Source: Arthrobacter sp. AFG20 (lineage in GTDB: Bacteria > Actinomycetota > Actinomycetes > Actinomycetales > Micrococcaceae). Taken from it: a stretch of DNA of 64,000 nt. The DNA lies in the NCBI RefSeq assembly GCF_002892795.1, contig NZ_PJMC01000004.1, positions 1-64,000 of the forward strand, read 5' to 3'. The stretch's first letter is position 1, and every line of letters begins with the position of its first letter. A program made the translations under genes and the position numbers. The notes beneath the pieces were generated by a model. It was given only the letters and a program-made list of their open reading frames with translations, ran no database searches and was not told the DNA's origin. Shown piece by piece: positions 12,478 to 14,241 of the stretch.

Positions 12478-13740
12478 CTAGCTGGCTTCGGCCGCTGCCG
12501 CACGGCGCTGGGCGAGCCGGATCTCCAGCACGGCATCGAGGGCCTGCTGGACCCGGTCCTGCGCGCCGGCGGCACTGAATTCCTTCTGCGCCTCCTCCAG
12601 ATGCACAAGCGCCTCATCCCCTTCGCCCGCAGCCTTCAGCGATTTGCCGAGAAGCAGCGAGACCTCGCCGGCCGTGTGCTTGGCCAGGTCCGTCCGTTCG
12701 GCGTGGATGTCGCGGAGCTTCTGGACGGCAGCCACGATGTCGCCGGTGAGGTAGAGCCAGCGGGCGCGGATGAAGGCGACTTCCAGCTGGTCCGTCTTGT
12801 TCCCGCCGACGATGGACAGCGCGAGTTCGGCGCGTTCAATGGCGGACAAGGTCTCCGGCTCAACGATTCCGGAGGAGAGGCGGACGGCAGCTGACGCCTT
12901 GTTGAAGCGGGCCCACAGCTCGATGTCGTTGGCGGGGGAGAGCAGCTTCGCCGCCCGCTCGTGGTGCTTGATGCCCTCCGGGTAGTCGTGCCGCATGAAC
13001 GCGACATTGCCGATCACCCATGCCACCTCGCCCGCGAGCTGGGACATTGAATGCTCATCCATCTGCTCATTCATGTCCTCGCAGTACTTCCACGCCTCGT
13101 CGAGCCGGCCGCTCTCGGCCAGTGCTCCGATCAGCGCCCGGAGCGCCCCGATGATGAGTGTTGAGCCCTTGGGCAGCTGGGCGCACAGCTCCACGGCCTT
13201 CTCGGCGTGTTCGACGGCGGTGCCCAGCTGGCCCTGCCCGTGGCACAGGGCGGCGAGCATCTGGCGCGCCCGGACACCCAGACCGGCCGATTCCGTGGCC
13301 ATGGGATGCTCGGACAGGTGCTCCATGATCTTCTGGCATTCCTTGAGGTGGCCCTGCTTCATGAGGCATTCGGCCTGCATGTAGGTCATGTTCCACCAGG
13401 CGCTGGTGTTTTTGCCGTCGAGGGCGATCCGGGCGGCATTGGCGGCGTGTTCGGCCGCGAGGGCGTAGTCACGCAGATCCCAAGCCTGCCGGGCATAGAG
13501 GCCAGCCAGCACGTATTCGGCGTCGCTGACCGAAATGGGCTGGCTCCACGCTTCGAGCGCCTTGGGCGCGAGCTCCAGCCTGCGGGCGAGCTCTTCGATG
13601 ACGTCGGCTGTGGGTTCCCGCCGGCCGGTTTCCAGCAGGGAAATGTAGCTGGGGGAGTACAGGTCCCTGCCCAGTTCGGCCTGGGTCAATCCGCGTTCCA
13701 GCCGCTCAGCGCGGAGCTTTTCCCCGAATCCGTTACCCAC
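12478..13740 (-). CDS. XRE-HTH regulator with C-terminal TPR domain (RRNPP-like)
   Basis: A 420-aa cytoplasmic regulator. Residues about 5-58 form an XRE-type helix-turn-helix (FGEKLRAERLERGLTQAELG, then SYISLLETGRREPTADVIEELARRLEL). The rest, about residues 70-410, is helical with paired-helix periodicity typical of TPRs (ALAAEHAANAARIAL, LGTAVEHAEKAVELC, SGRLDEAWKYCEDM, DEALVHLEEAQKEF). HTH plus TPR is the architecture of RRNPP peptide-responsive regulators (PlcR, Rgg, PrgX). GTG 13740 has AGGAGG seven bases upstream; the frame open further upstream has no such site. It is divergent from the small secreted protein at 13874-14107, its likely ligand precursor. Peptide binding is inferred. Confidence 0.85.
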   Translation of the reverse strand: MGNGFGEKLRAERLERGLTQAELGRDLYSPSYISLLETGRREPTADVIEELARRLELAPKALEAWSQPISVSDAEYVLAGLYARQAWDLRDYALAAEHAANAARIALDGKNTSAWWNMTYMQAECLMKQGHLKECQKIMEHLSEHPMATESAGLGVRARQMLAALCHGQGQLGTAVEHAEKAVELCAQLPKGSTLIIGALRALIGALAESGRLDEAWKYCEDMNEQMDEHSMSQLAGEVAWVIGNVAFMRHDYPEGIKHHERAAKLLSPANDIELWARFNKASAAVRLSSGIVEPETLSAIERAELALSIVGGNKTDQLEVAFIRARWLYLTGDIVAAVQKLRDIHAERTDLAKHTAGEVSLLLGKSLKAAGEGDEALVHLEEAQKEFSAAGAQDRVQQALDAVLEIRLAQRRAAAAEAS

Positions 13741-13780
13741 TGGGGTTCCTCCTATTCCGGACAGCCTTTGTACAGAATGC

Positions 13781-13811
13781 TTGACACCCTCTGTGGAAAA
13801 CATTTTACAAT
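13781..13811 (+). promoter_or_regulatory. Candidate promoter of the peptide-precursor gene
   Basis: TTGACA (13781-13786) is a consensus -35. TACAAT (13806-13811), one mismatch from TATAAT, follows after 19 bp, longer than optimal, so it would suit activation. The expected RNA leader is about 55 bases. An inverted TGTCAA at 13815-13820 mirrors the -35. Confidence 0.5.
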
Positions 13812-13813
13812 GT
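13800..13813. promoter_or_regulatory. Palindrome in the regulator/peptide divergent region
   Basis: ACATT-TTAC-AATGT is a 5-bp perfect inverted repeat overlapping the proposed -10 of the peptide gene. It is 59-73 bp from the regulator start and a plausible binding site for the XRE-TPR protein, by position and symmetry only. Confidence 0.4.
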
Positions 13814-13873
13814 ATGTCAACAAGGACTGTGCTGACTTGGTAACGAATCCAACTCGTATTGAGGAACCCTCAC

Positions 13874-14107
13874 ATGTTAAAGAAGATAGCAGCCGCTGCC
13901 GTTCTGGCGGGGGCCCTCGCATTTTCTGCTGCGGCTCCCGCCGTTCTGTCTGCAGGCTCGATCGCGGACAACGCGGGCACCTCGGTTGCCATTGGCAACT
14001 GGCCGGATCCGATGCGGGTCAAGGACGTGAACACGACCACTATCGGCAATTGGCCTGATCCCATGGTGTCAGAGACCACCATTGGCAACTGGCCCGATCC
14101 TATGTAA
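13874..14107 (+). CDS. Secreted pheromone-like precursor with three IGNWPDPM repeats
   Basis: A 77-aa small protein, preceded by GAGG ten bases before ATG 13874. It starts MLKKIAAAAVLAGALAFSAA, a Sec signal peptide with a Lys-Lys n-region and Ala-rich core, with likely cleavage after about residue 20-27. The mature part has three exact copies of IGNWPDPM at residues 40-47, 57-64 and 70-77; the last copy is the C-terminus. Linkers are RVKDVNTTT and VSETT. The three DNA copies differ only at third codon positions. It is divergent from the XRE-TPR regulator. The likely role is a precursor of secreted signalling octapeptides that are re-imported and bind the regulator. A short antimicrobial or surface-acting peptide is the alternative. 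Confidence 0.8.
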   Translation: MLKKIAAAAVLAGALAFSAAAPAVLSAGSIADNAGTSVAIGNWPDPMRVKDVNTTTIGNWPDPMVSETTIGNWPDPM

Positions 14108-14122
14108 ACAGCTTCCATGGGG

Positions 14123-14166
14123 AAAACGGCTCCGGAACATGCGCACATCATGTTCCGGGGCCGTTT
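14123..14166 (+). terminator. Intrinsic terminator after the peptide gene
   Basis: AAAACGGC and TCCGGAACATG pair with CATGTTCCGG and GGCCGTTTT around the loop CGCACAT, and a T run follows. It starts 16 bases after the peptide stop codon and marks a monocistronic transcript. Confidence 0.88.
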
Positions 14167-14241
14167 TTCGTTCCCAAATGTTTTCTTGGAGTAGCCGAAG
14201 AAACAGAAAGAGGGCCTCCCTGGGGAGACCCTCTATCCTTT

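What the first reader, a model, noticed from the sequence alone, without database searches (positions are those of the whole stretch)
12478..14107. Actinobacterial RRNPP-like peptide quorum-sensing pair with triplicated pheromone
An HTH-TPR regulator (420 aa) is divergent, with 133 bp between starts, from a 77-aa Sec-exported precursor carrying three copies of IGNWPDPM, the last forming its C-terminus. HTH plus TPR beside a short secreted precursor is the hallmark of RRNPP systems (Rap-Phr, Rgg-SHP, PlcR-PapR, PrgX), best known in Firmicutes. Three identical octapeptides in one precursor would give gene-dosage-like amplification. Export, cleavage, re-import and binding are inferred. The divergent region holds a TTGACA/TACAAT promoter with a long 19-bp spacer and a palindrome at the -10, consistent with autoinduction.
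Basis: partly seen in the sequence, partly recalled or inferred. Interest (0 to 1): 0.93.

Follow-up and report, generated by a model that had tools for sequence, protein, structure and literature searches.

The report
Tandem-peptide quorum sensing in Arthrobacter
Arthrobacter soil bacteria carry, back to back, a gene for a small, likely secreted protein with repeated copies of one eight-letter peptide (three here) and a gene for a regulator predicted to bind that peptide, which together look like a cell-to-cell signal of a kind known so far from another bacterial phylum, and several virus contigs carry tiny genes that spell the same peptide.

Summary
In detail: a 420-aa HTH-TPR regulator (12478-13740, minus) is divergent from a 77-aa Sec-type precursor (13874-14107, plus) with three IGNWPDPM copies. 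The pair is conserved: the 80 named loci examined (closest of 301; Arthrobacter, Pseudarthrobacter, Paenarthrobacter) all have it, and about half of 60 more distant regulators sit beside a changed peptide (VGIWPNS, VGDWPH, PGIWPDS). The strongest evidence is a receptor-peptide code: among 100 distinct receptors, peptide residue 1 (I, V or T) predicts receptor sites 127/132/167 without exception (MLH 65/65, IWQ 32/32, MLQ 3/3), with several independent switches. So receptor and peptide very likely touch. Export, cleavage, import and transcriptional output remain inferred. It works like RRNPP (PlcR-PapR, Rap-Phr); descent from that family is only partly testable. Beyond the finding: a second, TPR-only receptor with its own peptide (SVGWWPH in this genome) sits between histidine-kinase and GGDEF-EAL genes; leaderless ORFs carry the same peptides; and phage contigs carry 10-12-aa ORFs (MRIGNWPDPM-stop), mostly close behind Shine-Dalgarno-like sites: apparent phage-made copies of the host pheromone. 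My paper searches found no such system in Actinobacteria.

The parts
12478..13740 (-). HTH-TPR regulator (proposed pheromone receptor), 420 aa, GTG start
   Evidence: AlphaFold model mean pLDDT 90.0
13549..13728 (-). N-terminal helix-turn-helix (residues 5-64)
   Evidence: Pfam HTH_31 1.6e-11
12484..13530 (-). TPR domain, eight predicted helix pairs plus a last helix (residues 71-419)
   Evidence: Pfam TPR matches, predicted helices
13360..13362 (-). specificity site 127 (Met here; Ile in V-type systems)
   Evidence: perfect covariation with peptide residue 1
13345..13347 (-). specificity site 132 (Leu here; Trp in V-type systems)
13240..13242 (-). specificity site 167 (His here; Gln in V- and T-type systems)
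13780..13825 (+). nearly invariant promoter/operator block (role inferred); TTGACA 13781-13786, TACAAT 13806-13811, arms TTGACA/TGTCAA 13781-13786 and 13815-13820, ACATTTTACAATGT 13800-13813
   Evidence: 81 aligned intergenic regions; inverted repeat; 20-nt core once in the own genome at up to 3 mismatches
13874..14107 (+). 77-aa pheromone precursor
13874..13954 (+). Sec-type signal sequence, MLKKIAAAAVLAGALAFSAAAPAVLSA (end of it inferred)
   Evidence: sequence; hydropathy rule on relatives; no SignalP run
13991..14014 (+). IGNWPDPM copy 1
14042..14065 (+). IGNWPDPM copy 2
14081..14104 (+). IGNWPDPM copy 3, followed directly by the stop codon
14123..14168 (+). long hairpin (arms 14123-14140 and 14150-14167) with a T run: likely terminator of the precursor gene
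   Evidence: read directly in the sequence; the scan lists other sites, not this one

Best explanation
The two divergent genes encode an HTH-TPR regulator and a 77-aa protein with three IGNWPDPM copies, and together they likely form a peptide quorum-sensing pair in which the precursor would be exported by Sec, cut into IGNWPDPM-like pheromones, taken back into the cell and bound in the regulator's TPR groove. Binding would change how the HTH domain acts on the shared, nearly invariant promoter block, probably raising precursor expression (autoinduction). Shown here: the gene pair and its conservation, homogenised copies, strict conservation of the octapeptide against drifting codons, and covariation of the peptide's first residue with three receptor sites. 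Inferred: export, maturation, import, binding geometry, sign of regulation, and the regulon.
For: Pair conserved: the 80 named loci kept (best of 301) all have a divergent precursor 116-144 nt from the regulator start by the script's choice of start; the last copy ends the protein in 76 of 80. Strict conservation: in 213 units G2, W4, P5, D6, P7 are invariant while third codon positions vary. Homogenised copies: residue 1 identical within a precursor in 106 of 107, shuffle mean 44.5, maximum 55. Receptor code: I with MLH 65/65, V with IWQ 32/32, T with MLQ 3/3 at 127/132/167; exactly these 3 of 142 tested columns follow the peptide in 5 of 5 supported independent pairs (next best 165, 4.5 of 5); in columns 1-110, which lie nearer the precursor, the best reaches 2.4. 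Predicted fold: HTH plus eight TPR helix pairs, 127 and 167 near the ends of first helices of repeats 2 and 3. Diverged pairs keep a W-P core. Seven SBP_bac_5 (OppA-type) proteins exist in the genome.
Against: No binding, secretion or expression data. Of 60 further regulator stretches chosen from the list, 31 have no recognised W-P precursor beside them, 16 of these from one sister genus. The sign test on 5 supported pairs cannot fall below p 0.0625, and a tree on the full receptor counts only 5 changes of residue 1 (11 without columns 110-205), so switches are few. In L152 a block of receptor residues around 127-169 changed together, so gene conversion may have moved sites jointly. Residue 8 (M to A) shows no equally clean receptor partner. 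The operator core has no second site in the genome at up to 3 mismatches, so no regulon is seen. TPR folds are generic: APPBP2, MalT and APC/C chains match the model better than Rap, NprR or AimR.
Confidence: 0.82

Rival explanations
1. The precursor is a secreted antimicrobial or wall-active repeat protein, and the neighbouring HTH-TPR protein merely regulates it without binding the peptide.
For: It is a small repeated protein with a Sec-type leader next to a regulator; secreted repeats with a conserved aromatic core exist among surface and antimicrobial proteins (general knowledge).
Against: Peptide residue 1 predicts three TPR sites without exception in 100 receptors; TPR-only relatives without an HTH have their own W-P precursors; leaderless copies occur in chromosomes and phage contigs, hard to explain for a secreted antimicrobial. 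I recognised no modification-enzyme ORF in the list, but did not scan those ORFs.
Confidence: 0.08
2. The peptide acts outside the cell through a membrane sensor, for example the GAF histidine kinase beside the TPR-only copy, and the covariation with the HTH-TPR protein is indirect.
For: A GAF-HisKA-HATPase kinase gene adjoins the peptide gene of the TPR-only locus in the two genomes scanned.
Against: I recognised no kinase ORF beside the window pair (not scanned); the covarying sites lie in the predicted TPR domain; leaderless phage and chromosomal copies suggest action inside the cell.
Confidence: 0.06
3. The perfect receptor-peptide association is a by-product of linked transfer of the whole divergent locus, not of contact.
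For: The genes are adjacent and one case (L152) shows a block change.
Against: Receptor columns 1-110, nearer the precursor, do not follow the peptide (best 2.4 of 5 against 5 of 5), whereas simple linkage would make them follow it best.
Confidence: 0.07

Closest known systems
PlcR-PapR (Bacillus cereus group)
   Same: HTH plus TPR regulator with an adjacent small exported precursor (PapR details recalled); PlcR is the only RRNPP protein that my 67-row receptor profile finds under E 0.01 (2qfc, E 1.9e-4 over profile 3-185), and Foldseek ranks it 7th (3u3w, E 2.4e-06)
   Different: Different phylum; W-P-centred peptide; several tandem copies per precursor; longer receptor (PlcR chain 293 residues, here 420)
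Rap-Phr, including phage Rap-Phr with tandem pheromones (PMC11343458; outline and Introduction read)
   Different: No Rap three-helix bundle was looked for in the TPR-only copies; the neighbours here are GAF kinase and GGDEF-EAL genes; unrelated peptide
NprR-NprX and AimR-AimP (arbitrium)
   Different: Bacillota and their phages; here the phage contigs carry the peptide, and no receptor was found in the 9 records searched (possibly fragments, no positive control)
Rgg-SHP / ComR-ComS
   Same: Very short precursors without classical Sec leader; compare the 19- and 21-aa ORFs ending VGDWPD beside HTH-TPR genes in one sister genus (L119, L237)
   Different: The window precursor has a Sec-type leader and tandem copies

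Membership tests
RRNPP(A) quorum-sensing systems | Receptor of 250-500 aa with 5-9 TPRs (criteria as in PMC10075063 and PMC9765709 passages) | tested here: met
   420 aa, Pfam TPR, eight predicted helix pairs
RRNPP(A) quorum-sensing systems | N-terminal HTH (all subfamilies but Rap) | tested here: met
   HTH_31 1.6e-11
RRNPP(A) quorum-sensing systems | Propeptide gene directly adjacent, 10-120 aa | tested here: met
   77 aa, divergent, 133 nt; 80 of 80 loci examined
RRNPP(A) quorum-sensing systems | Propeptide with Sec export signal, often a KK pair and hydrophobic stretch | tested here: met
   MLKK plus hydrophobic stretch in sequence; hydropathy rule only, no SignalP
RRNPP(A) quorum-sensing systems | Mature pheromone of 5-10 aa, usually at the C-terminus | tested here: inconclusive
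   Conserved octapeptide ends the protein in 76 of 80; cleavage not tested
RRNPP(A) quorum-sensing systems | Re-import by an oligopeptide permease | not testable with these tools
   Seven SBP_bac_5 proteins present, which is common
RRNPP(A) quorum-sensing systems | Pheromone binds the concave TPR groove with specificity | tested here: inconclusive
   Perfect covariation at 127/132/167; no structure of a complex could be run
RRNPP(A) quorum-sensing systems | Common descent with RRNPP receptors | tested here: inconclusive
   PlcR E 1.9e-4, partial; PlcR, Rap, NprR, AimR among fold matches but other TPR proteins rank higher
RRNPP(A) quorum-sensing systems | Peptide changes receptor activity | not testable with these tools
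   needs experiment

The most novel reading that the evidence does not exclude
A family-wide actinobacterial pheromone language built on G-x-W-P octapeptides, read by HTH-TPR and by TPR-only receptors through a three-residue specificity code, which phages of these hosts exploit by encoding the finished host pheromone as a leaderless 10-12-aa gene (MRIGNWPDPM), so that an infected cell is told intracellularly that the quorum is reached.
Probability: 0.55. Interest if true: 0.94.

Novelty: new variant of a known kind. Interest (0 to 1): 0.87.

Why it matters
The RRNPP reports of which I read passages or sections describe cytoplasmic peptide quorum sensing in Bacillota and their mobile elements (PMC10075063, PMC9765709, PMC11343458), and PMC10075063 says that Actinomycetota signals are typically small molecules made by enzymes. 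A conserved peptide system in Arthrobacter and relatives would give that phylum a testable, genetically encoded language with a readable receptor code. The natural I/V/T switches make receptor-ligand co-evolution directly testable by exchanging three residues. If the phage mini-genes work as proposed, they would be a very compact form of signal hijacking: the finished host pheromone made inside the infected cell, without receptor, export or processing.

Tried and rejected
Promoter scan found no sigma-70 site because it allows spacers of 16-18 nt. Operator-core search in the own genome gave only the window site, so no regulon could be proposed. Tandem W-P pattern in 248 genomes of the order: outside the family the matches look like the reversed-pattern control and were not counted; the profile search (119 genomes of the order) then found three matches in two genomes of another family, one with a VGGSWPT x3 precursor beside it, the other two with none recognised. 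A receptor partner of peptide residue 8 (M/A) was looked for; no column was as clean. Phage collection: no relative of the regulator and no match to the 33-nt mini-ORF. Plasmids: in the ten rows listed of 19 only 25-29% identical proteins, mostly annotated HTH proteins of Streptomyces. Viral background patterns: IGWWP[DN]-stop 7 hits, none a start-peptide-stop ORF; VGNWPDA 14 hits and Mx[IV]GNWP[DN] 14 hits beyond the known contigs are other proteins or frames, with three to note: L294 (MPITVGNWPDAAD) and L298 (MQIGNWPNQF) are short frames without a Shine-Dalgarno-like site, taken as chance, and L304 (MAGRDPETMTVGNWPDPGSR) has an AGGAG site and may be a further phage copy. L275 fits the stop pattern out of frame and was dropped; L270 is a longer ORF, taken as chance; in L269 the peptide is five residues from the stop. 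A prophage relative in another genome of the genus (G640) has the neighbour gene at 73% identity but no mini-ORF. Fold lists: RRNPP proteins are present but not ahead of other TPR proteins. No complex prediction was possible, as the tool folds one protein. Left undecided: regulators without neighbour precursor (31 of 60), possible eavesdroppers. PADLOC, PHROGs and NCBIfam gave only HTH-type or weak matches for the regulator and none for the precursor.

Full report
What is there. The window encodes a 420-aa HTH-TPR protein on the minus strand (12478-13740, Pfam) and, 133 nt away and divergent, a 77-aa protein that begins MLKK plus a hydrophobic stretch and carries IGNWPDPM at 13991-14014, 14042-14065 and 14081-14104, the last directly before the stop. 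The neighbours are purD/purC-like genes upstream and two ABC-transporter-like ORFs downstream (my reading of the sequences, not scanned) and a tRNA-Pro.

It is more than chance. The motif pattern occurs three times in the window against 0.19 expected at up to three mismatches. The three copies differ from each other only at synonymous positions. Across 80 named loci, 213 units keep G2, W4, P5, D6 and P7 without exception while third codon positions vary.

The pair is conserved. A scan of named genomes with a 15-row receptor alignment found 301 relatives and kept the best 80, from Arthrobacter, Pseudarthrobacter and Paenarthrobacter. All 80 have a divergent precursor with the motif, 116-144 nt from the regulator start by the script's choice of start codon, with 1 (5 loci), 2 (37), 3 (21) or 4 (17) copies of the exact GNWPD unit; the last copy ends the protein in 76 of 80 (L151 carries three GIWPDPM variants, the last C-terminal, and is counted there with one copy and as not C-terminal). 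In a sample of 295 genomes of the family, 61 carry the motif pattern and 136 a regulator at E <= 1e-30; all 24 genomes of the genus in that sample carry both. The window and 29 further close regulator loci all have the precursor (30 of 30). Protein databases hold 319 relatives of the precursor at E <= 0.01; the names shown for the best 120 are hypothetical or low-complexity protein, once 'predicted phage tail protein'.

The peptide changes with the receptor. I read 60 more stretches around regulators, chosen from the list, 36-77% identical to the window protein. By my reading (list), 29 of 60 have a neighbouring small ORF with a W-P peptide, two of them without Sec leader (L107, L119), and 31 do not. 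Variants beside HTH-TPR genes: VGIWPNS x2, VGNWPDAV x5 and x4, VGNWPDAS, PGNWPDSV, PGIWPDS, TGNWPNVV, VWIWPDS x2, VGDWPH with up to 8 copies, VGEWPH x2, VGNWPDRF. Beside TPR-only genes: MGNWPH, DDWPH, IGWWPD, IGWWPN, SVGWWPH, GTGIWPY, VGSWPY, AGWWPN x2, VGNWPDGS, and in loci VGYWPF, VNNWPG and VNWWPN. So the fully shared letters are W-P, usually within G-x-W-P. In one genus the neighbour is a tiny leaderless ORF (MKTIERLAAASTAVGDWPD in L119). One receptor in another family of the order has MIAKATRAIAVLTLAAFALVPTVGGSWPTSQDPTVGGSWPTSQDPTVGGSWPTVLDAS beside it; the other two matches outside the family have none that I recognised.

The receptor code. From 112 pairs of the GNWPDP/GIWPDP group (80 named, 32 unnamed) 100 distinct receptors remained. 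Residue 1 of the peptide is I, V or T. Receptor residues 127/132/167 are Met-Leu-His in 65 of 65 I systems, Ile-Trp-Gln in 32 of 32 V systems and Met-Leu-Gln in 3 of 3 T systems. On a tree built without columns 110-205 residue 1 changes 11 times, on a tree from all columns 5 times. In the 5 independent pairs on well-supported branches these three columns, and no other of 142 tested, go with the peptide every time; the next best are 165 (4.5) and 139 (3.9); the sign test for 5 pairs cannot go below p 0.0625. In columns 1-110, which lie nearer the precursor, the best reaches 2.4, so simple linkage does not explain the association. One switch (L152) changed a block of receptor residues around 127-169, so gene conversion may contribute. 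The T clade has further private residues (129, 164, 168, 183, 192, 202). No site as clean was found for peptide residue 8. Within precursors the copies agree at residue 1 in 106 of 107 cases against a shuffle maximum of 55: all copies seem held to the same receptor.

The promoter. A block CTTGACA...CTGTGGAAAACATTTTACAATGTATGTCAACAAGG (13780-13825) is nearly invariant over most of its length in 81 aligned intergenic regions, much of the spacer included, which is more than a plain promoter needs; TTGACA and TGTCAA form an inverted repeat. An operator overlapping the precursor promoter is the natural reading (inference). The 20-nt core occurs once in the genome at up to 3 mismatches, so the regulon is unknown.

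A second system in the same genome. A paralogue (42% identity, no HTH) is divergent from a secreted-type ORF ending SVGWWPH. In this genome and in G244 the locus lies between a GAF-HisKA-HATPase gene and a GGDEF-EAL gene, with a DUF7793 ORF in G244. A Rap-like receptor acting on kinase or c-di-GMP proteins is a fair guess, untested.

Leaderless copies. The own genome has two more IGNWPDPM ORFs without signal sequence: four copies in a 69-aa ORF on C23 and one C-terminal copy on C10. Others occur in related genomes. In G123 such an ORF carries IGWWPN and IGNWPDPM, in G244 IGNWPDPM, IGWWPDLM and IGNWPDPM; the peptide of the TPR-only receptor is IGWWPN in G123 and IGWWPD in G244, so each ORF matches its own genome. 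Residue 1 of leaderless and secreted copies agrees in 10 of the 11 genomes in which I read both (my count; the match list was cut, so others may exist); G186 disagrees.

Phage contigs. The 21-nt peptide pattern hits 10 contigs of the IMG/VR collection. In 8 of 10 the peptide is followed directly by a stop in frame. Seven are mini-ORFs: MRIGNWPDPM (L265/L266 and L268/L272), M(SM)RIGNWPDPM (L271), M(M)STIGNWPDPM (L267/L273); an AGGAG- or AAGGAG-like site precedes each, rather far (about 12 nt) in L267/L273. In L268 the ATG overlaps the end of the DNA-polymerase-exonuclease gene (ATGA), and in L267 the stop overlaps the next start (TAATG), as in real phage operons. L274 has a hydrophobic leader and VGNWPDPM. 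L265/L266, L268/L272 and L267/L273 look like pairs of near-identical contigs, so about five lineages. In the contigs whose neighbours I scanned, a terminase large subunit lies downstream (L266, L271, L273) and a metallophosphoesterase (L271) or DNA-polymerase-exonuclease subunit (L268) upstream; the L268 record has a tyrosine integrase, in the other seven records searched none was found. No receptor was found in 9 records (fragments, no positive control). Background patterns gave no such start-peptide-stop ORF with a Shine-Dalgarno-like site except possibly L304. Host range is inferred: a relative of the L271 neighbour gene (73%) sits in 1 of 150 genomes of the genus, without a mini-ORF. The mini-ORF was not found in the named phage collection.

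How it most likely works. Secretion by Sec, trimming to the octapeptide, uptake by an oligopeptide permease (seven SBP_bac_5 proteins exist) and binding in the TPR groove, changing HTH action on the shared promoter. The leaderless and phage copies would skip export and import and act in the cell that makes them. Only the sequence facts are shown; the rest is inference by analogy with PlcR-PapR and Rap-Phr.

What is known. Of the papers: PMC10075063 (passages) searched Firmicutes and viruses only and says Actinomycetota signals are typically small molecules; PMC9765709 (passages) describes multi-copy precursors and receptors without precursors; PMC11343458 (outline and Introduction) reports processing of tandem pheromones; in PMC12700828 a term search for Actinomycet, Actinobact, Arthrobacter and Streptomyces gave no hit; PMC4748050 (passages) lists LuxR-type, REC and AAA proteins for Arthrobacter. 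A search for GNWPDP and relatives gave one unrelated paper. Listings of searches showed no actinobacterial RRNPP report among the rows shown; one search was too loose to inform. The library lacks most subscription papers and all bioRxiv preprints, so prior description cannot be excluded.

Noticed in passing
viral contig loci L265, L266, L267, L268, L271, L272, L273, L274: Phage contigs carry [IV]GNWPDPM directly before a stop; seven are 10-12-aa leaderless ORFs (such as MRIGNWPDPM) behind Shine-Dalgarno-like sites, apparent copies of the host pheromone. L304 may be a further one (MAGRDPETMTVGNWPDPGSR).
   Followed up: partly
own genome G000:C45:161328-162326 and L012 2664-2867: TPR-only paralogue of the receptor, divergent from a secreted-type ORF ending SVGWWPH, between a GAF histidine kinase gene and a GGDEF-EAL gene.
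   Followed up: partly
G000:C23:3398-3517 (L009 3383-3592) and G000:C10:59256-59276 (L010): Two leaderless IGNWPDPM ORFs (four copies in 69 aa; one C-terminal copy) with no HTH-TPR gene recognised nearby.
   Followed up: partly
L248 (G123) and L251 (G244): Leaderless ORFs that carry both signals of their genome: IGWWPN plus IGNWPDPM in G123; IGWWPD plus IGNWPDPM in G244.
   Followed up: partly
L119, L237: HTH-TPR genes of one sister genus are divergent from tiny ORFs without Sec leader ending VGDWPD (MKTIERLAAASTAVGDWPD; MSLFKTPFHPAPKPCVGDWPD), reminiscent of SHP-type precursors.
   Followed up: no
L239 and L262 (G369, another family of the order): HTH-TPR gene beside a secreted-type ORF with VGGSWPTSQDP repeats: the pair extends beyond the family with a changed peptide.
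   Followed up: partly
L082-L085, L090, L093, L095, L098-L106, L120: Orphan HTH-TPR relatives (16 of them from one genus) without a recognised precursor beside them; possible eavesdroppers or lost pairs.
   Followed up: partly
L152 (Pseudarthrobacter chlorophenolicus): Receptor residues around 127-169 differ as a block from sister receptors, together with a V to I peptide switch; looks like gene conversion of the specificity segment.
   Followed up: no
window 14123-14168: Long near-perfect hairpin with T run after the precursor, able to end transcription from both sides; the pattern scan did not list it.
   Followed up: no
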